Shown here in pieces: positions 2,864 through 33,222 of a stretch of 64,000 nt of DNA. Position 1 is the stretch's first letter, and every line of letters begins with the position of its first letter. The notes under the pieces are model-generated. The model was not told the origin of the DNA. It saw only the letters and a list, made by a program, of their open reading frames with translations, and made no database searches. Source of the DNA: Corynebacterium hindlerae (lineage in GTDB: Bacteria; Actinomycetota; Actinomycetes; Mycobacteriales; Mycobacteriaceae); contig NZ_CP059833.1 in assembly GCF_014117265.1 (NCBI RefSeq), positions 620,001-684,000 of the forward strand. The letters run 5' to 3'. Both the position numbers and the translations under genes were made by a program.

Positions 2864-2869
2864 CTTGAT

Positions 2870-3155: not shown

Positions 3156-3158
3156 GTT

Positions 3159-16137: not shown

Positions 16138-16158
16138 GTGTTCCGTTCCCCGAAACAC
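16138..16158. promoter_or_regulatory. Aromatic-regulon operator, site 1 (MHS transporter-mhpA)
   Basis: GTGTTCC and GAAACAC arms (core GTTCC-N7-GAAAC at 16140-16156, one mismatch from the other four sites). The centre is ~93 bp upstream of the transporter start. Probable binding site of the IclR-type regulator at 28623. Confidence 0.65.
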
Positions 16159-16199
16159 ACCACCATTGACCTGCGAAAACATTGGGATTCCTGGCCAAT

Positions 16200-16236
16200 A
16201 AAAATGGGGCCACGCCCGCTGGCGCAGCCCCATATT
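16200..16236 (-). terminator. mhpC terminator
   Basis: On the minus strand, ATGGGGC pairs with GCCCCAT with an inner GCGCC/GGGCG stem, followed by TTTTATT. It lies just after the mhpC stop and upstream of operator site 1, so mhpC and the transporter are separate units. Confidence 0.78.
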
Positions 16237-16245
16237 CTTGTGCGA

Positions 16246-17094
16246 TTACATGTGGCGTTCGAGCCACTTCCCTACCACTTCATTGAATTCTTCTGCTCGC
16301 TCCACCTGAGACCAGTGGCCACATTGCGAGAAAATGTGTGCATCAGCGTGTGGCACAACGTTGAGGATGTCCCAGGTACGAGACACTGGGATCACGCGAT
16401 CCTGTACGCCGTGGATAAGCAAGACGGGGATGTCGAGCTTGGCCAAGACGTCGAAGTCGAGAGGCAGTTCGTTGCGGTCGCGGTCACGAGCAGCGACCAC
16501 TTCCTTGAGCCGATCCGACGCGGTGTCATTGAGCGCGGATTCGTAGCGCAGCTGCACCAACTCGTCGGAAATCAGGTCATGATCGACAACGAACAGCTCC
16601 AGGGTATCCCGGATGCCTTCCGGGGTGAGGTTCGGGTTTGAGTGCCCCTTCAGTGCCCCGGTGAGCTTTGCGCCACCGGTACCCATGGAGACGATGCCCA
16701 GCAGGCGATCCGGGTAGTCAATAGCAAATTGGAAGGCCAGCCAGCCGCCGAGGGAGTTGCCAACGATCCAGGTCTTTTCGATGCCCAGCGCGTCCAAAAC
16801 GCGCACTGCGTGGCGAACCCACTCTTTAATACCGTACTTGGTCCCTTCTGCGACAACGGTCTGGCCGTAGCCGACGGAGTCAATCGCAATGCAGCGACCA
16901 TAGTTTGCTAGTTCAGGGAGGTTGAGCCACCAGTTGGCAGCAGCGGTGACGCCAGTACCAGAGCCGTGGAGGAACAGGATAGGTGCACCCTCGCCCAGCT
17001 CGTGGTAGTGCGTGATTTCACCTTCAGCGGTTTCCAGCCATTTGTCTTCCAAATCGAAGAAGTCATCGGTGCGGTAATCAGGGATCTGAGCCAT
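16246..17094 (-). CDS. mhpC: Meta-cleavage product hydrolase (2-hydroxy-6-oxonona-2,4-dienedioate hydrolase type)
   Basis: 282 residues, alpha/beta hydrolase fold of the MhpC/BphD group (E. coli MhpC is ~288). It hydrolyses the C-C bond of the ring-fission product to 2-hydroxypenta-2,4-dienoate plus succinate. Visible: oxyanion region LFLHGSGTG (~40), nucleophile Ser in VGNSLGGW (~115), Asp in HGVQDRVIP (~230) and His in SQCGHWSQVE (~258). A perfect GTTCC-N7-GGAAC site is centred 87 bp upstream and a terminator follows, so it appears monocistronic. The mhpD, mhpF and mhpE products would take the dienoate further. Confidence 0.9.
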   Translation of the reverse strand: MAQIPDYRTDDFFDLEDKWLETAEGEITHYHELGEGAPILFLHGSGTGVTAAANWWLNLPELANYGRCIAIDSVGYGQTVVAEGTKYGIKEWVRHAVRVLDALGIEKTWIVGNSLGGWLAFQFAIDYPDRLLGIVSMGTGGAKLTGALKGHSNPNLTPEGIRDTLELFVVDHDLISDELVQLRYESALNDTASDRLKEVVAARDRDRNELPLDFDVLAKLDIPVLLIHGVQDRVIPVSRTWDILNVVPHADAHIFSQCGHWSQVERAEEFNEVVGKWLERHM

Positions 17095-17172
17095 TTTTCT
17101 TCCTCACTTCACTGTCACTTAGCAGATCGTTGTTGCCATTGTTCCCCCTTCAAAGAAACAACGGGGGAATGC

Positions 17173-17189
17173 GTTCCACCTGACGGAAC
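17173..17189. promoter_or_regulatory. Aromatic-regulon operator, site 2 (mhpC)
   Basis: A perfect palindrome GTTCC-ACCTGAC-GGAAC, centred 87 bp upstream of the mhpC start. Confidence 0.72.
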
Positions 17190-17193
17190 ACTG

Positions 17194-17892
17194 TCAGCGT
17201 GCTCCCCAGCGCACAGTCTCCGCATAACGCTCGGGTTCACGTGGCAGGAACATTCCGTAGTGAAGTTCAAAGGCTTGCTGACGGTAAAACTCTCGTGACG
17301 GTTCTCCCCGAAGCATCGGCGCAGGTTGACGACCGGAATCACCACGTAGCTCGACGCTGCGCATCCTTCCCTGCCAATGGAGATCGTAGATCCGCTGATC
17401 GGACCATAACTCGAGCAGCATGAGGTGGTCAGGAAGCTCGATATTCTCGTACCAGGCGTAGTGGATGCAACCGGGTTCACGTCGCGTTTCTGCGATTTCT
17501 CGCGCCGTCAGCTCCCGCATCAGCTCATTGGGCTGGTAAGCACCTTGAATGACGATGGATACCGGCCCGGCGGCGGGCCACATGATGGGCCCAGGTTCGG
17601 TCGTCGCATCGGTGGGCGTCCAGCACCCGTCGGCGAGCTGATATGAAGACTGACGGTAGATCTCCACGTCTCCATCTGTGAAGATTTGGGATAGCGCTGG
17701 GAATTGCCCGCTTCGCTCCAGAAGCGCAGCCATGCCTTTCTCGTCGTCACACAGCATGGCCAGCGCGTATGCTTCTTCACCTGCTGCGAGGCTCCGGTAA
17801 ACCTCACACTGCGCTACCGCTTCGCGAGCAGCAGTGATTTCAGTCAGGAGGGCGTCGTCAAGCTGTGCAAACCTGGCGGTGAGGCGTATCAC
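17194..17892 (-). CDS. Two-domain ABM-like (dimeric alpha-beta barrel) protein
   Basis: 232 residues. The C-terminal half (~108-170: VIQGAYQPNELMRELTAREI..., EPGCIHYAWYENIELPDHLMLLELWSD) has the pattern of antibiotic-biosynthesis-monooxygenase/quinol-monooxygenase barrels. The N-terminal half (RLTARFAQ..., EEAYALAMLCDD) looks like a weaker second copy. No catalytic residues are diagnostic. It is the last gene of the alpha-beta-VOC operon, overlapping the VOC gene by 4 nt (ATGA), so a role in handling a quinol or ring-cleavage intermediate is likely but unproved. Confidence 0.6.
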   Translation of the reverse strand: MIRLTARFAQLDDALLTEITAAREAVAQCEVYRSLAAGEEAYALAMLCDDEKGMAALLERSGQFPALSQIFTDGDVEIYRQSSYQLADGCWTPTDATTEPGPIMWPAAGPVSIVIQGAYQPNELMRELTAREIAETRREPGCIHYAWYENIELPDHLMLLELWSDQRIYDLHWQGRMRSVELRGDSGRQPAPMLRGEPSREFYRQQAFELHYGMFLPREPERYAETVRWGAR

Positions 17893-18929
17893 GCCTGCTC
17901 CTCAAAGTCGATGACCCAGTCTGGGGCTTGATATTCCGGCTCGGCTGGGCGACGACGCACCACGCCTTCCACCAAGTACCCACCGAGGGCGTCGAACAGG
18001 TCGAAATATCCAAATTCCGCTGCTTCGCCACGCAGTGTCGAGCCCATGCACAGTGGGTGTCCCGCGGCAGTCATGTCATCCACCACTCGCTGCCATTGCG
18101 CATCATCCTTGGTCATCCAGCTGAAAATGTGGTGGATTCCGGGGCCACGGATATCAAAGAATTCGCGGTTGTAGTGGCTTGGACCGTGATTGCACTGGAT
18201 GATCTCGAAGCCAAAGTCGCCGGCAAAGCCCTGAGCCGTGAAGTAGCCGTGGTCGACCTTCTCGCCACGGTATTGTGGCGCGTCCAACCTGCCGAAACCG
18301 GTTTCCCACGTCTTCATCTCAAAGCGCTGGATTCCGAAAATCGCCCGGTAGTCATCTAGGGTCGCCAATACATCGTGTACGAGGACTCCGAAGTGGTACA
18401 TGCCCTGCGTCGGCAGCGGCGATGGCGCCCCCTGATCGCTGATCGGCTGCTGCACCTTGGTCACCATTTCCACATAGAAGCCACCGAGGCGCTCTCGGGT
18501 GTCGTAGAAGGAGCGCTGCTCGCCGCCGACGGTGGAGCGGTAGGCACAAGGCACGCTTAACGACGCAAAATGCTCCTCAATCCCATCGCCTTCCGCAGCG
18601 ACCTGAATGAAGCAAATGCCTTCCCGCTTGGTGCGCAGGTGCTCCATGAAGGGGGATTCGCCAGACACTGGCTGGATGAGTTCAAAGGTGAGGGCCCGTG
18701 CCGGTTCACCACCTGGCCCTTCCTCCCCTTCCCGAGGAACCGTGGACCCGACGGCACTGCGCCACGTTCCTGGCGTAGTGATATTGCGACGTCCGTTTGT
18801 TTCCCCGTCAGTGGGCGCGTTGTCTGCGAACTCCCACTTGGTGATGCCGTAGATTCGCTCGTACTCTTTCACTGTGGCGTCCAGGTCGTACACCACGACG
18901 CCAATGCGATTGAGATGTGTGGTCTTCAT
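17889..18929 (-). CDS. Two-domain VOC-superfamily protein, possible ring-cleavage dioxygenase or isomerase
   Basis: 346 residues made of two glyoxalase/VOC modules. The N-terminal module opens THLNRIGVVVYDLDATVKEY. The C-terminal one (~175-335) opens GMYHFGVLVHDVLATLDDYR and keeps potential metal ligands: His in MYHFG, His in GIHHIFSW and Glu in GGYLVEGV. Type I extradiol dioxygenases are built this way, but so are epimerases and glyoxalases. The sequence looks at least as close to methylmalonyl-CoA-epimerase-like VOCs. It lies in the second ring-hydroxylating operon, 16 nt after the beta subunit, so it probably acts on that enzyme's product. Confidence 0.7.
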   Translation of the reverse strand: MKTTHLNRIGVVVYDLDATVKEYERIYGITKWEFADNAPTDGETNGRRNITTPGTWRSAVGSTVPREGEEGPGGEPARALTFELIQPVSGESPFMEHLRTKREGICFIQVAAEGDGIEEHFASLSVPCAYRSTVGGEQRSFYDTRERLGGFYVEMVTKVQQPISDQGAPSPLPTQGMYHFGVLVHDVLATLDDYRAIFGIQRFEMKTWETGFGRLDAPQYRGEKVDHGYFTAQGFAGDFGFEIIQCNHGPSHYNREFFDIRGPGIHHIFSWMTKDDAQWQRVVDDMTAAGHPLCMGSTLRGEAAEFGYFDLFDALGGYLVEGVVRRRPAEPEYQAPDWVIDFEEQA

Positions 18930-18945
18930 ACGTTACTCCTGTTCG

Positions 18946-19479
18946 TTAGTAGAAAAGGCTGAGATTCTTCACCAGGATCGTCGCCATGTCGAAGCGGATT
19001 TCGCGCTCCAGCACCTGGAACCCGAATGGGGCGTCCGGGTTGGCGACGATGATATCGCGACGCTCGCCGGCGATGGTGTCCTGGCTGCGCTCGCCTCGGG
19101 AGCGGTAGATCAGAAAATTGGAGCGGACATTGTAATTGCCGTCCTCGCGGGCATCGATGCGCACGTTGGAAATCATGTGCCGTGAGCGTGACGGCGGTTC
19201 CTCTGCCCATGCCATGTGGGTTTGCAGCCGGAATACCCGCTGCTTCAAAAATGCCAGGTTTTCCTCGAAGTACACGGACGTGCCCTTCGGGTAGAACTCT
19301 TCTTTGCGCTCACGGGCGACGCGATTCTCACGCACTGGGGCCCAATAGTAGATGTCAGGGTGCATGCACGTGAGCCAGTCATCCCAGCGCATGTTGTCGA
19401 CGAGCTCGGCTTCGTCGTAAAGGAAGCGTGTGATTGCGCGTTCGGTCTCCGCGTCAACTCGCAGCGTTGTGGTGTCCAT
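18946..19479 (-). CDS. Aromatic-ring-hydroxylating dioxygenase, beta subunit (system 1)
   Basis: 177 residues, SnoaL-like fold of the BphA2/HcaF family. Typical segments are ITRFLYDEAELVDNMRWDDWL (~12), YYWAPVRENR (~45) and AWAEEPPSRSRHMISNVR (~90). It is the structural partner of the alpha subunit encoded 14 nt upstream in an alpha3beta3 complex. It differs clearly in sequence from the second beta subunit at 24788. The operon continues with VOC and ABM genes. Confidence 0.9.
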   Translation of the reverse strand: MDTTTLRVDAETERAITRFLYDEAELVDNMRWDDWLTCMHPDIYYWAPVRENRVARERKEEFYPKGTSVYFEENLAFLKQRVFRLQTHMAWAEEPPSRSRHMISNVRIDAREDGNYNVRSNFLIYRSRGERSQDTIAGERRDIIVANPDAPFGFQVLEREIRFDMATILVKNLSLFY

Positions 19480-19493
19480 GCCCTCAGTTCTCC

Positions 19494-20843
19494 TTACTTT
19501 TCCGTGTTCTCCGACATGACCGCGCTGAAATCAGCGGTCTCCACCTCCGGGCGTCCGCCTCTCATCTCTTTTAGCTCCTCCCAGGAATGTCCCTCCATCA
19601 GGTCTCGGTAGAAGCCATACATATTGAGGGCTGCGTTGTCGGAATAGACGTGTGCAGTGGACCCTCCCGGGTAGCCGTCGTCGTCCTGAACTACTGGCAC
19701 GCCACGCATGTTGTAGGTGAAACCCGTTTGACGGGACTTCGCACCGCGGAGAATGCGCTGCATCTCCTCCCAGTTTTCAGCATCGTCCTGTTCAAACATG
19801 CCGCCCGGAGAGAAGGTACGCATCACGTCGACACGGATTGCTTCCTTAACTTCCTCCGGAGCATCCTTAGGCACGAACGCCCACGACCAGATCTCCATCT
19901 CGTGTGGCCCGCGTGGGTGTGTCACGCGGAAGGTGTAGTTGCCCAGCAACATGAAGTTCGGGAACACGTTCATGTGGCCACGCACCTCACGGAACTCGCC
20001 GAGGCGTTGCTCAATGGAGTCGCGCACCGTGTTTTCCCATTCAATCAGCGCAGGGGCCGTGTTAGGGATTTCCTTGCCTCGGGCGCCGAAGAATGCGCCA
20101 CCGTGACCATACGGGCTGAAGAATTGACGTCCCGTCGGGATCTTTTCGCGTCCCTTCTTACGGTCGAAGGTATCGGACCCGGACGACAGCGCTTCCACTG
20201 CGGACACGTGGCTAATCTCAGAGTGCTGCATGTCAGAGGTTGGCTGTTCAACATTGAATTTCCAGTTTGCGGGAAGAACCCACTTGTGAACAGCGATGGC
20301 TTCCATGCCACCCTCGTAGCGGTCCACATAACCATCTAGGTAGTATTTGGCGTTTCCGAGGTATTCCTCCAGAGGCGGGATGGTCTCGTCCCAGGAGCCG
20401 AAAATGAATCCCTTGTAATTTTCAATCCGAGGAACCTGAATGGCGCTGAGCTTGGATTTATCGATCCCCTGCGGGTACGCGGTCTCCTCATGCGGGATGT
20501 TGATCAGTTTGCCTTCTAGGTCGTAGGCCCAACCGTGGAAGGAACACATGAAGCCCTTCGCCACTCCTCGGTCAGCTCGACAAATGCGCATGCCCCGGTG
20601 GCGACACTGGTTGAGGAACGCTTTGACCTCACCGGACTTCTGGCGAACCACGATCACTGGGTCTTCGCCAATGTAGGTCTGAATGTAGCTTCCTCGCTTG
20701 GGCAACATGGTTTCGTGGGCTAAGAAGACCCAGGTACGTTGCCACACTTGATCGAGTTCTTGGGCGTAGATGTCATCGTCAACGAAAATGCGTCCGGAGA
20801 CGTAGCCGCCTACTGGATCAATCAATTCTGAAATCTTACTCAC
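19494..20843 (-). CDS. Aromatic-ring-hydroxylating dioxygenase, alpha subunit (system 1)
   Basis: 449 residues. The Rieske [2Fe-2S] site is CRHRGMRICRADRGVAKGFMC...H (~81-105). The mononuclear iron ligands follow the D-x2-H-x4-H pattern in SDMQHSEISH (~207); Gln occupies the position that is Tyr in most relatives. The start is GTG with a strong AGGAGG. No ferredoxin or reductase gene accompanies it, so it probably borrows electrons from the ferredoxin/reductase of system 2. A perfect regulon palindrome is centred 83 bp upstream. The substrate is unknown. The family includes phenylpropionate, PAH and biphenyl dioxygenases. Confidence 0.92.
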   Translation of the reverse strand: MSKISELIDPVGGYVSGRIFVDDDIYAQELDQVWQRTWVFLAHETMLPKRGSYIQTYIGEDPVIVVRQKSGEVKAFLNQCRHRGMRICRADRGVAKGFMCSFHGWAYDLEGKLINIPHEETAYPQGIDKSKLSAIQVPRIENYKGFIFGSWDETIPPLEEYLGNAKYYLDGYVDRYEGGMEAIAVHKWVLPANWKFNVEQPTSDMQHSEISHVSAVEALSSGSDTFDRKKGREKIPTGRQFFSPYGHGGAFFGARGKEIPNTAPALIEWENTVRDSIEQRLGEFREVRGHMNVFPNFMLLGNYTFRVTHPRGPHEMEIWSWAFVPKDAPEEVKEAIRVDVMRTFSPGGMFEQDDAENWEEMQRILRGAKSRQTGFTYNMRGVPVVQDDDGYPGGSTAHVYSDNAALNMYGFYRDLMEGHSWEELKEMRGGRPEVETADFSAVMSENTEK

Positions 20844-20917
20844 ATTACCCTCCTAATGCGGTTATGCCGATCGTTGAAAGTAAATGTAGCCCCGCTCACA
20901 GCAAAGTTGGGAGCGGT

Positions 20918-20934
20918 GTTCCACAGACTGGAAC
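20918..20934. promoter_or_regulatory. Aromatic-regulon operator, site 3 (dioxygenase system 1 operon)
   Basis: A perfect palindrome GTTCC-ACAGACT-GGAAC (extended TGTTCC...GGAACA), centred 83 bp upstream of the alpha-subunit start. Confidence 0.73.
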
Positions 20935-21091
20935 ACAATGGGGTGAATGTGATTGCTGCACCCAAAAAGGGCTAAGGGACAAAATGTGTGTCTGAATTCC
21001 ACAGTAAAGCCAGGTCAGGGCATCTAAACAGGTGCTGTATATTGTTTCAGGCCTGATAAACCCACAAATCTTGTTCCATACCGCCAGTGAT

Positions 21092-21614: not shown

Positions 21615-21628
21615 TGAACCTTACGGAA

Positions 21629-22045
21629 TTACTTCTTAGGCGCCGGAACCGTATAGGTGGTGACCACCTTAGCTAGAATCGACTCGTCAACGGAAGAAAT
21701 CACGCTGGTATCGGTGACGATCACGCTACGCCCTGCACGCACAATCGTGGACACTGCGATCGCGTCGCCTTCCTTCTTGTTCGAGACGACGTTCACCGAG
21801 CTGGCAACAGCTAACGGGAATACCCCGGGTTCCACCTGCTGCATCGCCAGCCACGTGCCGGAAATATCAGCAAGCCCAAACAACGCTGGAGCGGAGAACA
21901 TTCCCGCTGGTTGGGATACCTCCTTTGACAACGGCATCCCGACCCGGACTTCCTCCTTAGACCCGGAGATCGGGTACAGCCCGAGCGTAATAGCTACGTC
22001 ATCGACGCGGGAGTAGAAATCGTCCCACTGCTCTTTGAAATTCAC
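21629..22045 (-). CDS. Hotdog-fold (PaaI-type) thioesterase-like protein
   Basis: 138 residues, one hotdog domain. MFSAPALFGLADISGTWLAMQQ (~48-70) matches the central helix of PaaI/YbgC acyl-CoA thioesterases, with Asp in the ADISGTW segment as candidate catalytic residue; SKEVSQPAGM precedes it. It is the last gene of the eight-gene operon and overlaps the GNAT-like gene by 4 nt. Next to an acyl-CoA ligase, it probably hydrolyses unproductive aryl-CoA esters and so releases CoA. That role is inferred. Confidence 0.75.
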   Translation of the reverse strand: MNFKEQWDDFYSRVDDVAITLGLYPISGSKEEVRVGMPLSKEVSQPAGMFSAPALFGLADISGTWLAMQQVEPGVFPLAVASSVNVVSNKKEGDAIAVSTIVRAGRSVIVTDTSVISSVDESILAKVVTTYTVPAPKK

Positions 22046-22362
22046 TTGAGCTCCATTTCATCCATGTTCTTAGGCTGATTAACTACCCAATCCGGCTCTG
22101 CCACCATGAGTGATACATCATTGCCGTCGCGAAGCTGCACGTCCAAGACATAGCGCATACCGGCCTTTTCACACTGTGCGATGGCGCTGAGGTCCCCCTC
22201 AGGAACCGCAACAACCACGCGGCGGCAAGCCTTATTGGTGGTGAAAATCTCGCGGATTTCTGCGGTCATTTCATCGATGGATCCAAAAACCAGTTCCACG
22301 TCATCTTTCCCGTACGGGTAGGTATGGCGCAGTGGTGAATCTTGAATGAGAATATGGTTCAT
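22042..22362 (-). CDS. Small GNAT-like protein
   Basis: 106 residues. The C-terminal part (RRVVVAVPEGDLSAIAQCEKAGMRYVLDVQLRDGNDVSLM) has the look of the last strands of a GNAT acetyltransferase, including an AIAQCEKAGMR segment where GNATs usually read A..LYEK.GF. The N-terminal acetyl-CoA-binding loop is absent, so catalysis is doubtful. It is tightly coupled to its neighbours: its ATG overlaps the ligase stop (TAATG) and its stop overlaps the thioesterase start. The function is unknown. Confidence 0.5.
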   Translation of the reverse strand: MNHILIQDSPLRHTYPYGKDDVELVFGSIDEMTAEIREIFTTNKACRRVVVAVPEGDLSAIAQCEKAGMRYVLDVQLRDGNDVSLMVAEPDWVVNQPKNMDEMELK

Positions 22363-23954
22363 TACTGCTCCTCTTGCTCACGCACGAATTGACGCACGGC
22401 AATTTTGTCGATTTTACCTGCGGAGTTACGTGGAATTTCCTCAACCACGTAGAGCTGCTTCGGCAGCTTGTAGCGAGCCAGGTGGCGCTCGCAGTGGTTA
22501 CGCACATCCTCGAGGTTCACTTCAGCGTCACGGTCCGGCTGGATAACCGCAACCACGATTTCACCCCACTTGTCGTCACGGCGTCCCACGACGGCGTTAC
22601 CGCGAACACCATCCAGCTCTGCAATGACGCGCTCCACCTCAGCTGGGTACACATTTTCGCCACCCGTAATGATGAGGTCCTTGAGTCGATCCACAATGTA
22701 GTAGTAGCCATCCTCATCGCGGTGGCCAAGGTCACCCGAGTGGAACCAGCCGGCGGTGTACGCCTTCTGGGTTACTTCTGGGTTGTTCCAGTAGCCTGTC
22801 GCTACGTTTGGCCCACGCACCCACAGTTCGCCGGTCCGGCCTGCTTCCTTCACTTCCTCACCGGTATCCGGATCCATGAGGCGAATCTCGGTGTACGGCA
22901 TAGGGATGCCACAGGAGCCGATCTTCTTCTCTGTCATCTCTGGCGGCAAATAAGTAGCGAACGGAGCTGTCTCCGTCAGCCCCCATGCCTGCTGTACAGC
23001 AATCCCCTTCTCCAGGTAACGGCGAATGAGGATAGGCGGCACCGGCGCACCAGCACAGATAGTGGCGCGCATAGAGTCGAGCTTCGCGTCAGCAAAATTC
23101 GGATGCGCATAGAGTGCTTCAAGCTGAGCAGGAACCATGAATGTGGAACCCACCTGGTGGTTTTCAATATCGCTCAGTACCTGTGCCGGGTCGAAACCGC
23201 GGTGGATAAGAACCGTGTTTCCCCGAGACAGTGCCTTAATAGCGAAGGAGTTCAGTGCTCCCACGTGGAACAATGGGGCCGCCACCAGGGTGACGTCGCC
23301 AGGGCGGGAATCCACCATGGTGTCCACGTTGACGGAGTTCCACCACAGATTGCCGAAAGTGAGCTGTGCTCCCTTTGGCAGGCCGGTGGTGCCAGAAGTA
23401 AACAGCAGCAATGCCAGGTCAGTCATCACCATTGGGCGAGGTCGCACTGCCTGTTCTGGTGCTTCCGGCATGGTGGAGGTCTGATTCCAGTACAGTGGCA
23501 CACGGCCGTCGGGTTCTGCTATGGGATCGTCGTCAACCACGATCACGTGGTGGCGCTCGATGCCGTAGATGTGCTTCGCCTGGTTCAGGTATGGCCCTTC
23601 CACCACCACGCTGTGCGGTGTTCCCTGCATCAATAGCTGCGAAACTTCTGGGGCGCTGAGGCGGAAGTTAAATGGCATGAAGGTGGCGCCCACTCGCCAC
23701 GCCCCCAGCATGGCGAAAATGAAGGATTTCGAGTTCATGCCCAAGTAAGCGATGCGATCGCCCTGACGAACGCCAGACTCTTCAAAGTAGTGAGCCCATT
23801 TGCGCACGACCTTCTCAAGATCACCGTAGGTGAACTGCTCATCACCATAGATGATGGCCACACGGTCCGGCTGGTACGTAGCGTGGCGTACCAGCTGGGC
23901 GCATGGGTTGACGTCGATCGTTTCAGCACGATGCTCTACACCAGTGATAATCAC
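22362..23954 (-). CDS. Acyl-CoA synthetase (AMP-forming), aryl-alkanoate:CoA ligase type
   Basis: 530 residues, ANL superfamily. The AMP-binding P-loop LLFTSGTTGLPKG is at ~183, WGLTETAP at ~325, the hinge/gate region GWFHSGDLGHRDEDGYYYIVDRLKDLI at ~405-430, and the C-terminal catalytic Lys in NSAGKIDK at ~515. It activates a carboxylic acid to its CoA thioester via an adenylate. In this operon the likely substrates are phenylpropionate/cinnamate-like acids or a side-chain-bearing intermediate. E. coli hca/mhp clusters lack such a gene, so it suggests a broader substrate range. It overlaps the dehydrogenase gene by 4 nt. Confidence 0.88.
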   Translation of the reverse strand: MIITGVEHRAETIDVNPCAQLVRHATYQPDRVAIIYGDEQFTYGDLEKVVRKWAHYFEESGVRQGDRIAYLGMNSKSFIFAMLGAWRVGATFMPFNFRLSAPEVSQLLMQGTPHSVVVEGPYLNQAKHIYGIERHHVIVVDDDPIAEPDGRVPLYWNQTSTMPEAPEQAVRPRPMVMTDLALLLFTSGTTGLPKGAQLTFGNLWWNSVNVDTMVDSRPGDVTLVAAPLFHVGALNSFAIKALSRGNTVLIHRGFDPAQVLSDIENHQVGSTFMVPAQLEALYAHPNFADAKLDSMRATICAGAPVPPILIRRYLEKGIAVQQAWGLTETAPFATYLPPEMTEKKIGSCGIPMPYTEIRLMDPDTGEEVKEAGRTGELWVRGPNVATGYWNNPEVTQKAYTAGWFHSGDLGHRDEDGYYYIVDRLKDLIITGGENVYPAEVERVIAELDGVRGNAVVGRRDDKWGEIVVAVIQPDRDAEVNLEDVRNHCERHLARYKLPKQLYVVEEIPRNSAGKIDKIAVRQFVREQEEQ

Positions 23955-24775: not shown

Positions 24776-24787
24776 CTGGTGACCGCC

Positions 24788-25348: not shown

Positions 25349-25385
25349 CTTCAATCATCCCTTATGTATGTCAGTGGTATGCGGC

Positions 25386-26594
25386 CTAACGAGCCAACTT
25401 CTTCAGATTCACCGCGGGATCAGCAAGCGCCTCGGGGTCCACCACAACCTTGCGATCAATCAGGCGTCGGGCTGCGCGTACCGCCATTCCCTTGTCGTAC
25501 GCGGTGCAACCAACGATGGTGCTGTCCGGTGCAACGCGGAACACCACTTGTGGTTGTCCTTCTTCATCTGGACGAATCACGGTCTCGCCTTCGGCAGTCA
25601 TTGAGCCGACGCCTTCCACGTGCACGCCATAGCGGTCTGTCCAGAACCAGGATGCGCCGTGCTCTGGTAGCTCTTGCCCGCAGATATCAGCGGCAGCGGT
25701 TTGCGCGTCGAAGATTGCGGACTCCCAGTGCTCGTGGCGTCGTTCCAGGGTGCCGTCGGCATTGCGCACGCGAGCGCAGTCACCTACCGCCCAGATCCCG
25801 TCAGCGGTGGTGCGCTGAGCATGATCGACCAGAACGCCACCGTCGCATTCCAGTTCTGCGGACTTGGCCAGGTTTTCTTCTGGGATGATGCCCACTGCAA
25901 CCAGGACTACGTCTGCAGTCACGGTGTCTTTGCCATCGATGTCGATGACGAAGGTGGCGCCTTCTCGACGGATGCCCGTCGTAAAGCCGGCCACGGTCTC
26001 AACGCCGTGCGCTGCGTGCAGCGCATGCAGACGCTCGGCAATTTCCTTACCGACGGCTGGTACCAGCGCTACTGGAACAGGATCGATGAGGGTGACTTCA
26101 GCGCCCAACTCTCGGGCACTCGACGCAACTTCGGCACCAATCAGACCAGCGCCGATGATGGCCAAACGAGTGCCTTTGCCCAGGGCCTTCTTCAGACGCT
26201 GCGCATCTTCAGTGGTACGAAGCACGAATAGATCTGGGTCATCAAAGCCCGGAGCTGGCAGCGGCCGTGGTAGCCCACCGGTAGCCAGCACGAGTTTGTC
26301 AAAAGAGTGGGTCCCACCGCCGTCGAGAACGAGCTCGCGTTCCTCCGGCTTGATCCGATCCACCTTTGCCTTGACCAGGGTGACCTTGTTTTCCTCATAC
26401 CAGCTACGCGGAGCGAGCAGAAGTTGTTCGGCGTTCTTGGAGCCCTGCAGGATTTCCTTTGACAGTGGCGGACGATCGTAGGGGTAACCGAGTGGATCGA
26501 TGATGGTCACGGCACCTTCGAAGCCACGGTTGCGCAGTTCCGCAGCCACGGTGTACCCGCCGATACCGCCACCTACGATGGTGACATTACTCAT
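25386..26594 (-). CDS. hcaD: Ferredoxin-NAD(+) reductase of the dioxygenase system
   Basis: About 402 residues, glutathione-reductase-like FAD/NADH flavoprotein (HcaD/BphA4). FAD-binding TIVGGGIGGYTVAAELRNRG at the N-terminus, YPYDRPPLSKEIL (~45), NAD-binding AIIGAGLIGAEVASSARELG (~148) and the second FAD motif GIWAVGDCARVRN (~270). It passes electrons from NADH to the Rieske ferredoxin. The start at 26594 is chosen because ATGAGTAA overlaps the ferredoxin stop by 8 nt and the GGGIGG motif then sits at residue 7. Confidence 0.92.
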   Translation of the reverse strand: MSNVTIVGGGIGGYTVAAELRNRGFEGAVTIIDPLGYPYDRPPLSKEILQGSKNAEQLLLAPRSWYEENKVTLVKAKVDRIKPEERELVLDGGGTHSFDKLVLATGGLPRPLPAPGFDDPDLFVLRTTEDAQRLKKALGKGTRLAIIGAGLIGAEVASSARELGAEVTLIDPVPVALVPAVGKEIAERLHALHAAHGVETVAGFTTGIRREGATFVIDIDGKDTVTADVVLVAVGIIPEENLAKSAELECDGGVLVDHAQRTTADGIWAVGDCARVRNADGTLERRHEHWESAIFDAQTAAADICGQELPEHGASWFWTDRYGVHVEGVGSMTAEGETVIRPDEEGQPQVVFRVAPDSTIVGCTAYDKGMAVRAARRLIDRKVVVDPEALADPAVNLKKLAR

Positions 26595-26937
26595 CGGTGG
26601 CCTCCGCCGGAGTGCCTGGGTAGAGCCACACTTCATCGTCACGAATCTCAACCTTGTGGGTGTTGGTGTCCTCGGATGCTGGCATGCACAGGACCTTGCC
26701 GGTCTTCAGGCAGAAACGACCGGAGTGCATCGGGCACTCAACTTCGTTTCCTTCGATCCAGCCGTCTGCCAGTGACGCATCTGCGTGGGTGCAGATGTCA
26801 TCGAGCGCGTAGTATTCGTCTTCATCGGTGCGGAAGACTGCGATGCCTACTGGGTGGCCAGACGTCTCTGGAGAAACAACGATTGCTTCCTCCTGCTCGA
26901 TGTCGTCGACCTGGGCTACTTTGACGGGATTGCTCAT
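26587..26937 (-). CDS. hcaC: Rieske ferredoxin of the dioxygenase system
   Basis: 116 residues, soluble Rieske-type [2Fe-2S] ferredoxin. Cluster motifs are CTHADASL (~46) and CPMHSGRF (~66), that is, C-x-H plus C-x2-H. It shuttles electrons from the reductase to the terminal oxygenase. It is the only ferredoxin in the island, so it may serve both dioxygenases. It lies 26 nt after the alpha subunit and overlaps the reductase start by 8 nt. Confidence 0.93.
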   Translation of the reverse strand: MSNPVKVAQVDDIEQEEAIVVSPETSGHPVGIAVFRTDEDEYYALDDICTHADASLADGWIEGNEVECPMHSGRFCLKTGKVLCMPASEDTNTHKVEIRDDEVWLYPGTPAEATDE

Positions 26938-26963
26938 GGGTATGCTCCTATGTTCGGTGTCGG

Positions 26964-28298
26964 TTACTGATCGGTGTTTTCATGCCATGCTGGCGTGGAC
27001 ATCAGCTCACGCCACCTGCGGTAGAGGCCACGACCTGCTGCATCGGAGTACAGCTCGGAGGTGGTTCCTGGGTAGTCTTCGCGCTGTTGCTCAGTACCCA
27101 TACCCATCTGGTAGTTGAGCGCGGTGTTGCCGACCATGAACGCGTGTGCGTTGGCCTGGCATTCAGACCAGTTTTCTCCGTCGTCCTGCTCGAAGATGCC
27201 GGACGGGCCAAAAGTGCGGAGGTTGTAGAGGCGCTGAGCGCGACGTACTTCCTCGGGCATGGACTTATCCAGGACGGTCCAGGACCACACTTCCATCTTG
27301 TTCGGGCCCTTTGGGTGCCAGACGCGGATGGAACCATTCACCGGAAGGTAGGAGAAGTTAGGGAACACCGTGGCGTGACCGTTGGTCAGCGGTCCCATGA
27401 CTTGCTCTGGAGACAGGCGCTCACGGAGGAAGTCGTAGTCGTAGTATTCGTGTACTGGTTGGGCGTCGAAGCGGTTCTTCGGGTGGACTGGGAAGCCAGC
27501 ACCATTGCCGCGTTCGTCGGTGTATTGGCGTCCGGTACGCTGCGCGATTTCTTTCTTTGGTCCCTTGCCCGTTGGAGACATCACCATCAGCGCGGATGCA
27601 TGGGACATGTTGACGTGGTACCAGTCGGTTGCGAACTGTTCAGCTGCGAGCTTCCAGTTGCCTTCCAAAACCCATTTGGTCACGCCCCCGACAACGGTGG
27701 TGCCTTCTGGATCACGGTCCATGAAGGCATCGATGTACCACTTCATCTCTCCGAGCGCGTCTTCCAGCGGTTCGGCGTCTTTGTCCCAGTTGGCAAAGAT
27801 GAGGCCCTTGTAGCTTTCGACACGTGGTGCGGTCACCAGGCCCCAGTCCGCGAGATTGAAGTCGGACGAGTAGGACTCCTGCGCTGGTACGTTGACGAGG
27901 TTGCCATCGAGGTCGTAGGACCAACCGTGGTAGGTACAGGTGAAGTTTTTGGTGGATCCCATGTCTGCACGGCAGACGCGGGCGCCACGGTGACGGCAGT
28001 TGTTCAGCAGAACGCGGATTTCGCGCTTCTTGTTCATAGAAGCGATGACTGGGTCTTCGCCCATGTAGGTCTGGAAGAAGTCGCCTGGCTTCTTGAACTG
28101 ATCCTCGTGCGCGATGAACAGCCAGCTGCGGGCGAAGATGCGACGCATTTCCTGGTTGTAGACCTTCTCGTCAGAGAAGATACGTCGATCGATTAGGCCA
28201 CCTTCTGGGTTGACCATGCCGGTGACGTCAAGGTTCTCCTCCAAGCCTTCCGGCCTGGTGAGCCCTGCCCGAGGCATGGGGTTGTCAGGGGTGCACAT
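26964..28298 (-). CDS. hcaE: Aromatic-ring-hydroxylating dioxygenase, alpha subunit (system 2; phenylpropionate/biphenyl type)
   Basis: 444 residues. Rieske site CRHRGARVCRADMGSTKNFTC...H (~100-124). Mononuclear iron site EQFATDWYHVNMSH (~225) with D-x2-H-x4-H. It is the first gene of the eight-gene operon, preceded by GGAGG 4 nt before the ATG. With ferredoxin, reductase, beta subunit and dihydrodiol dehydrogenase it makes a complete multicomponent dioxygenase. The linked mhpB-D-F-E genes suggest 3-phenylpropionate or cinnamate as substrate. A biphenyl or alkylbenzene substrate cannot be excluded. Confidence 0.92.
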   Translation of the reverse strand: MCTPDNPMPRAGLTRPEGLEENLDVTGMVNPEGGLIDRRIFSDEKVYNQEMRRIFARSWLFIAHEDQFKKPGDFFQTYMGEDPVIASMNKKREIRVLLNNCRHRGARVCRADMGSTKNFTCTYHGWSYDLDGNLVNVPAQESYSSDFNLADWGLVTAPRVESYKGLIFANWDKDAEPLEDALGEMKWYIDAFMDRDPEGTTVVGGVTKWVLEGNWKLAAEQFATDWYHVNMSHASALMVMSPTGKGPKKEIAQRTGRQYTDERGNGAGFPVHPKNRFDAQPVHEYYDYDFLRERLSPEQVMGPLTNGHATVFPNFSYLPVNGSIRVWHPKGPNKMEVWSWTVLDKSMPEEVRRAQRLYNLRTFGPSGIFEQDDGENWSECQANAHAFMVGNTALNYQMGMGTEQQREDYPGTTSELYSDAAGRGLYRRWRELMSTPAWHENTDQ

Positions 28299-28426
28299 AG
28301 TTCCTCCTTGATTACTACGGGGAATCCCATTTGAGATCCACCGACCATTCAGGACTTTTTGTAATCCGGTTCACAATTGGGTGATGGCATTACTTTGCTC
28401 CCGATGTGAGTCAAATTAAAACTGCC

Positions 28427-28443
28427 GTTCCGCCTAGCGGAAC
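28427..28443. promoter_or_regulatory. Aromatic-regulon operator, site 4 (between hcaE operon and iclR-type gene)
   Basis: A perfect palindrome GTTCC-GCCTAGC-GGAAC, in which the inner GC/GC also pairs. It lies in the 324-bp divergent intergenic region (28299-28622), centred 137 bp before hcaE and ~190 bp before the regulator. Reading toward hcaE, a TTGACT box follows it within ~15 nt, consistent with a regulator bound just upstream of a -35. Reading toward the regulator, a TACGAT -10-like box is at 28588. Nothing else is recognised in this region. Confidence 0.73.
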
Positions 28444-28622
28444 GATTGATATGAGCGCTTACCCCCGCTGGCGATAATGAAACACATCTCAGCTAGCCAG
28501 GTCCTCGGTTTTCCCAAGTGAATCAATGACTGCCACCCCCGGGGTTAGTCACAACGCTTGCGAACTTTTTGGGAATCGCCCACCGAGTACGATGTAAGAA
28601 AAAATGAAAAGAGGTTCCTCCC

Positions 28623-29417
28623 GTGGCTACTGCGCCAGACACCCGCAGCGCCGTCGATAAGGCGTTCAGTTTGCTGCGTTGCTTCAGCCCCAATGACGCG
28701 TCCGGCGTCGGCGTGAGTGAACTCGCTCGCCGTGCTGAGCTATCCAAATCCACTGCTCACCGGCTGCTCGCAATGCTCGTGGCCAATGGCGCGGTGGAAC
28801 GAGCTGACGATGTGTACCGACTCGGCCCGCTCTGCTTCGAACTGACTCAGCAGTCGGTCAGCGAGTCCGCCGAAATGATCAGTGAAGTACTCACTCCTCA
28901 CCTGGCTGCACTGTTTGAGCAGACTAGGCACACGGTTCAGTTGGGGTATTTGGAAGGCACTGAGGTGGTGTACGTGAACAAGCTGTTCTCGGCCCAGCGC
29001 GTATCCTCCCCTTCCCGCATCGGCGGGCGCGCCCCTGCGGTGTGCACGGGAATTGGTAAGGCCCTGCTCGCGTGGGACGAGACCCGACTCGAGTCCGCAC
29101 TGCAACGTGGTCTTCCGAAATGGACGCCCTACACCATCACTGACCCTGAGGAACTGCGCCAGGAGCTGGAACAGGTTCGTCTCGAGGGCTTCGCATACGA
29201 CAGGCAAGAAATCGCACTCGGCCTGTCCTGCATCGCCGCTCCAATTTTCGGCCGAAATAACCAGGCAGTAGCAGCGATGTCCATTTCGGGGCACGCCGCG
29301 CAGTTTAAACCCGACGTTTTTGCCAATGCTTTACGACGCACCTGTGCCGCCGCAAGCAAGTCCCTCCTGAATTTCCAGCGCCAACAGGAACGAAAAAAAC
29401 CGCTAGCCAGCACGTAA
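28623..29417 (+). CDS. IclR-family transcriptional regulator (MhpR-like)
   Basis: 264 residues. The N-terminal winged helix-turn-helix (~5-60: SAVDKAFSLLRCF, SKSTAHRLLAMLVANGAVER, YRLG) is followed by the IclR effector domain (~80-255, with VYVNKLFS, RAPAVCTGIGKALLAW, and CIAAPIFGRNNQAVAAMSISG). E. coli MhpR, the activator of the mhp genes, belongs to the same family. It is the only regulator in the island and is transcribed away from the hcaE operon. It probably binds the five GTTCC-N7-GGAAC sites with an aromatic acid as effector. Start is GTG with AGAGG upstream. Confidence 0.9.
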   Translation: MATAPDTRSAVDKAFSLLRCFSPNDASGVGVSELARRAELSKSTAHRLLAMLVANGAVERADDVYRLGPLCFELTQQSVSESAEMISEVLTPHLAALFEQTRHTVQLGYLEGTEVVYVNKLFSAQRVSSPSRIGGRAPAVCTGIGKALLAWDETRLESALQRGLPKWTPYTITDPEELRQELEQVRLEGFAYDRQEIALGLSCIAAPIFGRNNQAVAAMSISGHAAQFKPDVFANALRRTCAAASKSLLNFQRQQERKKPLAST

Positions 29418-29446
29418 TCCACGCTGGCTAGCGGCCAAGCCAAGGC

Positions 29447-30451
29447 TTAGGCGTTCTTCAGGGCCACAGCAACATCAATAATCATGTCTTCCTGACCGCC
29501 CACGTAACCACGGCGGCCAACTTCCCGCAAGATATCAGCGGTAGGTACGCCGTAGCGCTCCGACGCCCGCTCGGCGTGGAGCAGGAAGGAGTTGTAGACG
29601 CCCATTTGACCTTGGACGATCGAACCGCGGTCCATCGCTGGCAGGCGAGGCACCATAGGCTTAAGAACGTCCTCCGCCGCGGACAGGATCTTCGGGATAT
29701 CCACGCCGGTCTCAATCCCCAGGCGGTCAAAGGCAGTCGCGAGCACTTCCGTCGGAGAGTTACCTGCACCAGCGCCCAGGCCTGCGAGGGAACCGTCGAT
29801 CTGCTGTGCACCGGCACGGACCGCAAGAACAGAGTTGGCAACACCGAAGGACAGGTTCTGGTGACCGTGATAACCAACCTGAGCTTCGTCGCCAATCTCG
29901 TCCAGGATAGCCTTCACGCGGTCGCTGGCCTCTTCCATGATGAGCGCACCAGCGGAGTCAACCACGTACACGCACTGGCAGCCAGCGTCCACCATGATCC
30001 TGGCCTGCTTAGCTAGGCCGGCAGGATCCAGGCGGTGAGACAACATGAGGAAACCACCGGTTTCCATGCCAAGGTCACGGGCAGCCTGGAAGTGCTTGAT
30101 GGAGACATCTGCTTCCGTGCAGTGCGTCGCCACACGGACCATCCCAGCGCCACGCGCATGCGCTTCCTTCAGATCGGCCACAGTGCCGAGGCCCGGCAAC
30201 AACAACACCGCAATCTTTGCCTGCTTCGCCTCATCCACGGCTGCGGACACCAAATCCAGCTCGTTGGTCTTGGAGAAACCGTAGTTGAAAGAAGAACCAC
30301 CCAGGCCATCGCCGTGCGTGACTTCGATGAGTTGAATTCCGGCGTCGTCAAGCGCGCGTACGACGGCGCGCACCTGCTCCTCTGTGTACTGGTGACGCAC
30401 TGCGTGGGAACCATCGCGGAGAGTGGTGTCATTGATACGAATCTTGGTCAT
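29447..30451 (-). CDS. mhpE: 4-Hydroxy-2-oxovalerate aldolase
   Basis: 334 residues, DmpG/MhpE family TIM-barrel aldolase with a C-terminal communication domain. N-terminal metal-site motif INDTTLRDGSHAVRHQYT, then the metal-ligand region GYHGHQNLSFGVANS (~195). It cleaves 4-hydroxy-2-oxovalerate to pyruvate and acetaldehyde and channels acetaldehyde to MhpF. I chose the ATG at 30451, 1 nt after the mhpF stop; longer starts run into mhpF. It is the last gene of the mhpB-D-F-E operon. Confidence 0.96.
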   Translation of the reverse strand: MTKIRINDTTLRDGSHAVRHQYTEEQVRAVVRALDDAGIQLIEVTHGDGLGGSSFNYGFSKTNELDLVSAAVDEAKQAKIAVLLLPGLGTVADLKEAHARGAGMVRVATHCTEADVSIKHFQAARDLGMETGGFLMLSHRLDPAGLAKQARIMVDAGCQCVYVVDSAGALIMEEASDRVKAILDEIGDEAQVGYHGHQNLSFGVANSVLAVRAGAQQIDGSLAGLGAGAGNSPTEVLATAFDRLGIETGVDIPKILSAAEDVLKPMVPRLPAMDRGSIVQGQMGVYNSFLLHAERASERYGVPTADILREVGRRGYVGGQEDMIIDVAVALKNA

Positions 30452-30452
30452 G

Positions 30453-31376
30453 TTACTTTCCTTCCCCACGCAGCACATCAACCATGCGGTCGGCGGTCGC
30501 CACCGCAGCGGCGGTAATGATATCGAGGTTTCCGGCATAATCCGGCAGGTAATCGGCAGCTCCAGCGACCTCCAGCAAGACGGTCACCCGGCCCCACCCC
30601 TGCCAATCTTCGCGAGCCTCATCAAACTGCGGCTCGGCAGTAAGACGGTACCCAGGAACGTAAGCCTGCACCGTTTCCACCATGTGCTCGATGGATTGGC
30701 GAATCTGATCCCGCAGCTCACCCGGGGCCGCGGCCTCCGGAGGCAACGCACAGTACACGGTGTTGCGCATCATCATCGGCGGCTCAACCGGATTCAGGAT
30801 CAAGATCGCCTTGGCCTTCTTCGCACCGCCGACCTGTTCCAACGCTGCCGCAGTGGTCTGCATGAACTCGTCAATATTGGCACGCGTACCAGGGCCGGCA
30901 GAACGAGACGAAATAGACGCCACGATCTCGGCGTACTCGACCGGAATGACGCGAGAGACTGCAGCAACAATCGGGGTGGTTGCCTGACCGCCACAAGTAA
31001 TCATGTTGACGTTATCTACGTCCTGCAGCTCATCCAGGTTCACCGCTGGGCAGAAGTATGGGCCCACCGCTGCCGGGGTAAGGTCGATCGCCCGAATGCC
31101 CGCCTCACGGTAGAGGGGCGCATTAGCCTGATGAGCATACGCGGAGGTCGCTTCGAACACCAGGTCAGGCTTAACATCCTGTTCCAGCATCCATTCCACG
31201 CCGCCTGCCGACGCCTGGACACCCAAATCTTCGGCTCGCTTCAAACCATCCGACGTAGGATCTACACCGATCATGTAAATCGGCTCAACGTTCTTGGAAT
31301 TCTTCTGCAGCTTCATCAGCAGGTCAGTACCAATGTTTCCTGGCCCGACGATAGCCGCTTTTAGCTTTTCTGCCAT
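30453..31376 (-). CDS. mhpF: Acetaldehyde dehydrogenase (acylating)
   Basis: 307 residues. NAD-binding [17 protein letters not shown] at the N-terminus. The catalytic Cys lies in [13 protein letters not shown] (~130), followed by the [11 protein letters not shown] region. It oxidises acetaldehyde plus CoA to acetyl-CoA, in a channelling complex with the aldolase encoded 1 nt downstream. A clear AGGGGAGAAG ribosome-binding region precedes the ATG. Confidence 0.96.
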
Positions 31377-31399
31377 CTTCTCCCCTTATTCTTTTTTAA

Positions 31400-32176
31400 T
31401 TAGCTAAACGAAACGCTCAGTTGGCCGTAGCGACCAAAATCGACATCAACGGTGGAGCCAGGAATCACCGGTGCTGCGGCACAGAAGCTTCCGGTGAGCA
31501 CAATGTCGCCGGCCTTCAGTCCAACTCCTTGCTCCCCCAATGTCTGGGCGAGCCACACGAGAGGCTCAACCGGGTGTCCCATTACAGCGGAACCTTCGCC
31601 CGTGCCCGCAACCTCACCATCAATGGTCATGGTTGCTGGTACCGACGGCAGATCATCAAAAACAATCTCTTCAGCAACGTTGCCCAAGACGATCGCAGCG
31701 CAGGATGCGTTGTCAGCAACGGTATCCACAAGCTTGATGTCCCAATCGCGGACGCGAGAGTCAATGATTTCCACAGCCAGGAACGTCTCCCCGATCGCCT
31801 CACGCACCTCATCCATAGTGGCGGTGGCCGGCAGGTCACGGTTCAGGACGAAACCCAACTCAGGCTCGACCTTTGGAGAAATAAACTGAGAAGCGTCGAT
31901 AACGTCACCGGACCGGAATACCTGCTTCTCGGTAAAGAAACCAAAATCTGGCGAATCGACCCCCAGCTGCTGTTGCATCGCGAGGGACGTCAACCCAATT
32001 TTGCGGCCAGCGATCTTCTCGCCTGCAGCAACCAGCATTTCCTCCTGAATCTGCTGAATACGGTATGCGCCGGACAGATCCAAACCAGGCAGAGTCTCTC
32101 GAGGTGGAGTGATTGGCTGCTTGGTCGTGTACGCCTCAGCGAGTTCCTTCGCAACTGCCTCGTAGTTTACGTTCAT
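31400..32176 (-). CDS. mhpD: 2-Keto-4-pentenoate (2-hydroxypentadienoate) hydratase
   Basis: 258 residues, fumarylacetoacetate-hydrolase-like fold of the MhpD/BphH family. Motifs: GRKIGLTSLAMQQQLGVDSPDFG (~57), VEPELGFVLNRDL (~105), EIIDSRVRDWD (~138) and VLTGSFCAA (~228). It hydrates 2-hydroxypenta-2,4-dienoate to 4-hydroxy-2-oxovalerate. I use the ATG at 32176; a TTG directly before it is possible. AAGGAAG lies upstream. It is second in the mhpB-D-F-E operon. Confidence 0.94.
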   Translation of the reverse strand: MNVNYEAVAKELAEAYTTKQPITPPRETLPGLDLSGAYRIQQIQEEMLVAAGEKIAGRKIGLTSLAMQQQLGVDSPDFGFFTEKQVFRSGDVIDASQFISPKVEPELGFVLNRDLPATATMDEVREAIGETFLAVEIIDSRVRDWDIKLVDTVADNASCAAIVLGNVAEEIVFDDLPSVPATMTIDGEVAGTGEGSAVMGHPVEPLVWLAQTLGEQGVGLKAGDIVLTGSFCAAAPVIPGSTVDVDFGRYGQLSVSFS

Positions 32177-32192
32177 CAAAAAGCTTCTTCCT

Positions 32193-33128
32193 TTAACTAG
32201 CGGTCATAATGCCGAAACCAGCGATGTATTCCTTGATCGGCTCATAGAACTGGTAATCCACCGCATACTCAGGATGTGCAGCAGCCAACGCAGAGAACGC
32301 CGCCACCCAGGTGCGGACCTCGTGGGAGGAATGACCAGCAAGCTTGTCCATCTCATCAGCCTGGTACTGGTCAAAGAGTTCTGGCGTACCTGACGCGCAG
32401 ACCTTCATAAACTCCTTGTCCCACTCCGGATTCAGATCCTGAATATCAGCCTGACCGGCAGCGAACGCCTTAGCCGTGTTGATCACGCGTTCTTGGCGCG
32501 CGTTGCGGGCTTCCGGAGTTGGGTTCCGGCCGTCGAGAAGCAATGCCCGCTGTTCCTCGTTCGCGGTCACCCACTGTGGCACCGGCGGGTCGTGGCTCAG
32601 TCCACCGGAAGCAATAAGAAGAATCTTCTCATCGCGGTCTTTCAGGAACTCACCGATCGCCTCTCCCATCAAGCGGACGCGCTGCATCGGCACAAACGGA
32701 CGGGCCAATCCGTTGACATACACCGGGACGGTCTTGCGGGCAGCAATGTCACCAAAGACAATTTCCGCAGGTTGAACCGCACCGTGATCGACTTCCATCT
32801 TGCGAGAAATTGCAATATCAATTCCTTTATCGATCACAAACTGAGCCATCTCTTCAGCGAGCTCGGTAGGAACATCGAGCTCACCTTCCTGAGAATTGTA
32901 ATCACCCACGCTGCGAGCTTTGTACCCAATGCAGTACGGCGGCATCAAATCATAGAAGAACCCGTTGTAATGATCCGGAGCGAACGTCACAATCAGATCA
33001 GGATCAAAATCACGCGCAAAATCCTTCGCGGATTTCAGCGCAGCGCGCAAACTCTGCTCAGCATCCTTCGGAAGCTCATTGATCCCAAGAAGCGGGCTGT
33101 GTGACATGGCCAGCAAAGCAATCGGCAT
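32193..33128 (-). CDS. mhpB: 2,3-Dihydroxyphenylpropionate 1,2-dioxygenase (extradiol, LigB family)
   Basis: 311 residues (E. coli MhpB 314). Type II extradiol dioxygenase. MSHSPLLGI at the N-terminus, FAPDHYNGFFYDLMPPYCIG (~50-70), DHGAVQPAEIVFG (~115) and SGGLSHDPPVPQW (~175) cover the His/Asp residues that bind Fe(II) and act as acid-base. It opens the ring of 2,3-dihydroxyphenylpropionate (or dihydroxycinnamate) meta to a hydroxyl. It heads the mhpB-D-F-E operon, with a perfect regulon palindrome centred 86 bp upstream. Confidence 0.95.
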   Translation of the reverse strand: MPIALLAMSHSPLLGINELPKDAEQSLRAALKSAKDFARDFDPDLIVTFAPDHYNGFFYDLMPPYCIGYKARSVGDYNSQEGELDVPTELAEEMAQFVIDKGIDIAISRKMEVDHGAVQPAEIVFGDIAARKTVPVYVNGLARPFVPMQRVRLMGEAIGEFLKDRDEKILLIASGGLSHDPPVPQWVTANEEQRALLLDGRNPTPEARNARQERVINTAKAFAAGQADIQDLNPEWDKEFMKVCASGTPELFDQYQADEMDKLAGHSSHEVRTWVAAFSALAAAHPEYAVDYQFYEPIKEYIAGFGIMTAS

Positions 33129-33205
33129 GGTAAGTCAAGCTCCTTAAACTCTCGGTATTTGTGTATCGAAAGTCTAAAATGCCGCAAAACACAATCCACG
33201 TCCCT

Positions 33206-33222
33206 GTTCCACTGTTCGGAAC
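33206..33222. promoter_or_regulatory. Aromatic-regulon operator, site 5 (mhpB-D-F-E operon)
   Basis: A perfect palindrome GTTCC-ACTGTTC-GGAAC (extended TGTTCC...GGAACA), in the 153-bp gap between mhpB and the divergent pth, centred 86 bp upstream of mhpB. Confidence 0.73.

What the first reader, a model, noticed from the sequence alone, without database searches (positions are those of the whole stretch)
16138..33222. One palindrome, GTTCC-N7-GGAAC, precedes all five transcription units of the aromatic island
Sites at 16140-16156 (one mismatch), 17173-17189, 20918-20934, 28427-28443 and 33206-33222. Four lie 83-93 bp before start codons and the hcaE site lies 137 bp before. The seven spacer bases differ at every site while the arms are constant, which argues for selection on protein binding. 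The only regulator in the island is the IclR-family protein at 28623, whose own gene is divergent from site 4. This also links the uncharacterised dioxygenase operon to the phenylpropionate genes.
Basis: partly seen in the sequence, partly recalled or inferred. Interest (0 to 1): 0.75.

Follow-up and report, generated by a model that had tools for sequence, protein, structure and literature searches.

The report
IclR operators of a phenylpropionate regulon
One short DNA palindrome sits at the same distance from the promoters of a gene island for degrading phenylpropionate-type aromatics and is most likely the landing site of the island's own IclR-type regulator: a well-supported example of a known kind of gene control.

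Summary
In detail: GTTCC-N7-GGAAC occurs four times exactly and once with one mismatch at the stated places. The genome (2.68 Mb) has 11 exact copies, four of them here. The extended motif YGTTCC-R-N5-Y-GGAACR, read from relatives, occurs exactly four times in the genome, all in the island. Of 25 other same-genus genomes with an iclR orthologue, 24 carry at least one exact copy in the fetched island stretch, in differing gene orders, before hcaE, mhpC/mhpB, the second dioxygenase, the transporter and often iclR. Among 16,384 palindrome classes it ranks first (51 of 100 upstream regions). New here: the site lies 29 bp upstream of a -10-like hexamer at all five window promoters (0 of 20,000 shuffles) and 27-30 bp in 57 of 74 sites of relatives, with no recognisable -35 box. 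That geometry suits an activator. The arms match the published GTT-11-AAC class of IclR operators (PMC8222616). Best reading: a local IclR regulon, new member of a known kind. Binding, direction of control and inducer are inferred, not shown.

The parts
16140..16156 (.). site 1, one mismatch in one arm, before the transporter gene
   Evidence: -10-like TACTCT at 16105-16110 on the - strand, 29 bp away
17173..17189 (.). site 2, exact, before the mhpC-like hydrolase gene
   Evidence: -10-like AACAAT at 17138-17143, - strand
20918..20934 (.). site 3, exact, before the second ring-hydroxylating dioxygenase operon
   Evidence: -10-like TACATT at 20883-20888, - strand
28427..28443 (.). site 4, exact, between divergent hcaE and iclR
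   Evidence: -10-like CAAAGT at 28392-28397 (- strand, hcaE side) and GATAAT at 28473-28478 (+ strand, iclR side), both 29 bp away
33206..33222 (.). site 5, exact, before the mhpB operon
   Evidence: -10-like TAGACT at 33171-33176, - strand
28623..29417 (+). iclR: IclR-family regulator, the likely binder
   Evidence: Pfam HTH_IclR and IclR_C; orthologue in 26 of 242 genus genomes, own included
14661..16055 (-). MFS transporter
16246..17094 (-). mhpC-like alpha/beta hydrolase
17194..20843 (-). second dioxygenase operon: alpha and beta subunits, glyoxalase-fold protein, ABM-domain protein
21629..28298 (-). hcaE operon: dioxygenase alpha, ferredoxin, reductase, beta, dehydrogenase, acyl-CoA ligase and two small genes
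   Evidence: names by likeness
29447..33128 (-). mhpB-D-F-E meta-cleavage operon
   Evidence: MhpB passes the NCBIfam cut-off for 3-carboxyethylcatechol 2,3-dioxygenase, 451.8 against 291 bits; D, F, E by likeness, not scanned against a library

Best explanation
The palindrome, in full YGTTCC-R-N5-Y-GGAACR, is the operator of the island's own IclR-family regulator. A dimer binds it just upstream of each promoter and, when the inducer (phenylpropionate or a pathway intermediate) is present, helps RNA polymerase start all units together; at site 4 one operator faces both hcaE and iclR. Shown by sequence: the sites, their restriction to the island, their conservation with the genes, the fixed distance to a -10-like hexamer, the poor -35. 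Inferred: that IclR is the binder, that it activates, and what the inducer is.
For: Extended motif 4 times in the genome, all in the island, against 1 for the reversed control. 24 of 25 other same-genus genomes with iclR have an exact copy in the fetched stretch. Unit heads carry the site, internal genes do not: e.g. hcaE 17 of 19, second dioxygenase 5 of 5, against 2 of 63. First of 16,384 palindrome classes. Offset 29 at 5 of 5 window promoters, 0 of 20,000 shuffles; 27-30 in 57 of 74 sites of relatives. No site has TTGACA within one mismatch in 58 cases; the consensus promoter scan finds none at these units. Motif class published for the IclR family (PMC8222616). iclR intact or as a remnant in 24 of 24 genus genomes with mhpB. 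Recognition helix closely conserved in orthologues.
Against: No binding or expression data. G497 has only a one-mismatch copy. iclR lacks a site within 350 bp in 8 of 25 regions. In other genera 10 of 12 hcaE loci carry only a one-mismatch form and 2 carry none. The published consensus has an A/T-rich centre, which these sites lack. In G347 only 1 of 3 exact sites fits the extended motif. For hcaE in the window a slightly better -10-like hexamer lies at offset 6.
Confidence: 0.8

Rival explanations
1. Same operators and same IclR protein, but it represses the units and is released by the inducer.
For: Many IclR-family proteins are repressors (established knowledge; e.g. NpdR and LtbR are called repressors in the reference titles of PMC8222616).
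Against: The palindrome ends about 41-42 bp upstream of the inferred start, clear of the -35 and -10 positions, at a nearly constant distance, with a poor -35. A repressor would not need that.
Confidence: 0.13
2. Another regulator encoded elsewhere in the genome binds the palindrome; iclR is a bystander.
For: Binding was not tested; the genome has other IclR-domain genes (12 matches at E<=1e-3, 9 over the Pfam cut-off). In G568 the sites persist although iclR is reduced to a remnant, and another IclR-like gene (26% identity) lies nearby.
Against: Co-occurrence of iclR with mhpB and hcaE; motif class of the IclR family; a site also before iclR in 17 of 25 regions, partly shared with hcaE.
Confidence: 0.05
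3. Chance palindromes, or RNA structures such as terminators.
For: Site 4 is also listed as a terminator-like stem (16 such in 18 kb, 15.1 expected). Seven exact copies lie outside the island.
Against: The other four sites are not listed as terminator-like. None of the seven outside copies fits the extended motif or has a -10-like hexamer scoring over 2 at 27-30 bp. Conservation and promoter spacing.
Confidence: 0.02

Closest known systems
IclR-family operators of group 1, subgroup GTT-11-AAC (Suvorova and Gelfand 2021, PMC8222616)
   Same: GTTYC-R ... Y-GRAAC arms and purine/pyrimidine ends, 17-bp palindrome of odd length
   Different: Centre is not A/T-rich; a base outside each arm (Y, R) is also constrained here; whether this regulog is in the paper's supplementary tables could not be checked
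GenR of Corynebacterium glutamicum (gentisate, IclR type)
   Same: Same layout: ATTCC-N7(5)-GGAAT in Table 1 of PMC8222616 (passage seen); aromatic catabolism in the same genus
   Different: Outermost base A/T instead of G/C; different pathway; protein sequences were not compared
MhpR of Escherichia coli (3-(3-hydroxyphenyl)propionate, IclR type)
   Same: Works like it: IclR-type control of mhp genes; activation by MhpR is recalled, not from a call
   Different: Operator GGTGCACCTGGTGCACA (PMC8222616 Table 1); orthology was not tested
PcaR/PcaU/PobR subfamily (TIGR02431)
   Same: Best NCBIfam hit of the protein
   Different: 156.1 bits against a cut-off of 284.75: not a member

Membership tests
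IclR transcription factor family | N-terminal HTH_IclR and C-terminal IclR effector domain | tested here: met
   PF09339 55.4 bits (cut-off 22) and PF01614 151.2 bits (cut-off 24)
IclR group-1 GTT-11-AAC operators | Arms GTTYC-R and Y-GRAAC, 17 bp | tested here: met
   4 exact window sites; 42 of 43 distinct exact sites of relatives have R and Y at the spacer ends
IclR group-1 GTT-11-AAC operators | Three central A/T bases | tested here: not met
   Central columns are mixed: T 32, C 34 and A 26 of 66 are the commonest letters
IclR group-1 GTT-11-AAC operators | Bound by an IclR protein | not testable with these tools
   needs EMSA or footprint
IclR-type transcriptional activator | Site upstream of the core promoter at a fixed distance, with a weak -35 | tested here: met
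   starts not mapped, so -10 hexamers are by likeness
PcaR/PcaU/PobR subfamily (TIGR02431) | Score over the curated cut-off | tested here: not met
   156.1 against 284.75 bits
MhpR orthologue | Orthology to E. coli MhpR | not tested
   no MhpR sequence was compared

The most novel reading that the evidence does not exclude
Operator, a 27-30-bp spacer and a -10 box form one portable promoter module that lets islands be reshuffled freely between species and lets new enzymes, such as the second dioxygenase, join the regulon; in the window the single hcaE/iclR operator is read from both sides with the same 29-bp spacing, so one site drives the pathway and its own regulator.
Probability: 0.45. Interest if true: 0.45.

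Novelty: new member of a known kind. Interest (0 to 1): 0.35.

Why it matters
It makes five operons, one with an uncharacterised dioxygenase, and the regulator gene one predicted regulon with a defined operator, promoter geometry and a single candidate regulator, recurring in about 25 genomes of the genus. It gives a lead on the second dioxygenase (a phenylpropionate-related substrate) and testable parts for an aromatic-acid biosensor. It is not a new kind of regulation.

Tried and rejected
Rejected: chance. A global regulator: no exact extended site outside the island; of 18 other copies examined (11 one-mismatch extended, 7 exact short) two have a -10-like hexamer scoring over 3 at 27-30 bp, and both lie in frames open through nearly all of the stretch. 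Terminator reading: only site 4 is listed as terminator-like, and terminator-like stems are at background in this stretch (16 against 15.1). Uninformative: one-mismatch scan of the genome; site 4 facing iclR has no counterpart with a good -10 at that offset in every relative: among the 18 iclR-side sites of relatives with a hexamer to score, 9 score 3.0 or more (which listed 19 sites in all and in L141 and L142 ran into the end of the region).

Literature: searches (PMC open library). None of the listings showed a paper on this regulon; one search held 19 papers of which 15 were listed, held 78 of which 15, held 22 of which 15. PMC8222616: passages, outline and the whole Results section; PMC6498646: passages; all other papers: listings only. 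PMC3624541 (GenR) was not held. The supplementary tables of PMC8222616 could not be read, so this regulog may be listed there.

Rows dropped: tblastn hits under 90 residues and genes with under 40 nt of upstream gap; L001 was left out there because its contig has the same length as that of L134. L142, near-duplicate of L141, was left out but kept in 42 and 43. L041 and L147 overlap, so one transporter and one mhpA region were counted twice. Sites between divergent genes count for both genes. Relatives are not independent samples, so the counts are not probabilities.

Full report
Observation. GTTCC-N7-GGAAC was found exactly at 17173, 20918, 28427 and 33206 and with one mismatch at 16140. Exact copies expected by chance in the window: 0.06; none of 100 shuffles reached 4. 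The genome is 2.68 Mb and has 11 exact copies against 6 for the reversed control; 4 of the 11 are here. With up to one mismatch the count is at background, 129 against 136. The genus is Corynebacterium by inference: G481, marked same genus, has a contig of 699,869 bases, the length of the contig titled Corynebacterium sp. 74A.

Genes. All five sites precede leftward units: transporter, mhpC-like hydrolase, second dioxygenase operon, hcaE operon, mhpB operon; iclR is divergent from hcaE. MhpB passes the cut-off for 3-carboxyethylcatechol 2,3-dioxygenase (451.8 against 291 bits). Both dioxygenase alpha subunits match HcaE best but far under its cut-off (430.5 and 428.1 against 830), so hca names are by likeness.

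Comparative test. iclR was found in 26 of 242 genus genomes at E<=1e-45, own included. I fetched about 20 kb (in three cases two stretches) around it for the 25 others. 24 of 25 carry at least one exact copy; G497 carries one one-mismatch copy only. Gene orders differ, yet the site stays with unit heads. Regions (up to 350 bp upstream) with at most one mismatch: hcaE 17 of 19 (17 exact), second dioxygenase 5 of 5 (4 exact), mhpC 19 of 21 (10), transporter 10 of 12 (3), mhpB 11 of 18 (9), mhpA 4 of 7 (1), iclR 17 of 25 (7); other genes with at least 40 nt of upstream gap, 2 of 63 (2). The two hcaE misses and the two hits in the last group are the same two loci, L144 and L145, where an mhpD gene heads the operon. 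Six of seven mhpB misses have an mhpC-like gene ahead of mhpB with an exact site; the seventh is G497. In 12 loci of other genera with an hcaE orthologue, 10 carry a one-mismatch form ahead of hcaE or of mhpD-hcaE, and L148 and L152 do not.

Unbiased rank. Over 1,024 five-base arms and 16 spacer lengths, GTTCC with spacer 7 occurs exactly in 51 of 100 regions of at least 80 nt; the next four classes (17, 16, 11, 9) are shifted versions of it, and the rest reach 6 or less; the reversed pattern occurs in none. From 66 distinct sites the motif reads Y-GTTCC-R-N5-Y-GGAAC-R; 42 of 43 distinct exact sites have R and Y at the spacer ends, where chance gives about a quarter. The extended motif occurs 4 times in the own genome, all in the island, against 1 for the reversed control; with up to one mismatch 16 against 9, site 1 among them.

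Promoter geometry. In relatives the best -10-like hexamer in the 40 nt downstream starts 27-30 bp from the palindrome in 57 of 74 sites, against about 8 for an even spread; on the other side it is 19 of 71, as expected where units are divergent. In the window one offset, 29 bp, scores at all five promoters (TACTCT, AACAAT, TACATT, CAAAGT, TAGACT): summed score 20.1, next offset -1.6, 0 of 20,000 shuffles as high. For hcaE a hexamer at offset 6 scores a little higher, 3.8 against 3.1. The hcaE site thus differs from the others by a longer leader, not by promoter spacing. On the iclR side of site 4, GATAAT also starts at 29 bp. The -35 is poor: of 58 sites none lies within one mismatch of TTGACA and 12 have two mismatches (21%, against about 13% with two or fewer in shuffles); a consensus scan of 16000-34000 finds one promoter-like site, at 18992-18964, none at these units. 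If the hexamer is -12 to -7, the palindrome spans about -58 to -42. That this means activation is inference.

Who binds. The protein has both IclR domains. PMC8222616 gives GTTYCRYW3RYGRAAC as one of four group-1 operator classes of the family and lists ATTCC-N7(5)-GGAAT for GenR. mhpB is in 24 of 242 genus genomes; 23 of them have iclR at E<=1e-45, and G568 has a C-terminal remnant of it beside the transporter gene, an exact site before the transporter and a one-mismatch site before mhpB. In the family sample, the 14 other genomes with an unbroken hcaE hit of at least 68% identity all have an iclR match at E<=1e-60; a fifteenth, G193, has hcaE in two pieces and a partial iclR match at 8e-47. 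The recognition helix is closely conserved among orthologues.

Verdict. A local IclR regulon of six units, probably activated, with a defined operator and a fixed promoter spacing. The kind is known. This member and its spacing were not seen in the searches named, whose lists were partly cut and whose library is open-access only.

Noticed in passing
window 11548-14651: An mhpA-like FAD monooxygenase gene lies in two pieces (11548-12663 and 14127-14651, - strand) on either side of an ISL3-family transposase gene (12830-14140, + strand; DDE_Tnp_ISL3, 205 bits). The 3-hydroxyphenylpropionate branch is probably broken here while the hca branch looks whole.
   Followed up: partly
window 21367-21468: A 30-nt inverted repeat, 93% complementary with 42 nt between the arms, in the wide gap between the second dioxygenase unit and the hcaE operon; it holds GTTCC and GGAAC words but not the operator. 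Function unknown.
   Followed up: no
window 2289-3938: Phage-like genes: a VG15 match (75 bits) with a weak EndoU-nuclease match below the cut-off in the same reading frame, and a neighbouring coiled-coil-like protein.
   Followed up: no
L179 (genome G568) 13777-15204: iclR reduced to its C-terminal half beside the transporter gene, with an exact operator still upstream and a one-mismatch operator before mhpB: a natural case for what happens to the sites once the DNA-binding half is gone.
   Followed up: partly
L133, L134, L135, L136 and others, mhpC upstream: In several relatives mhpC starts only 45-49 nt after the operator with the -10-like hexamer in place, so its mRNA is probably leaderless (sequences; inference).
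   Followed up: no
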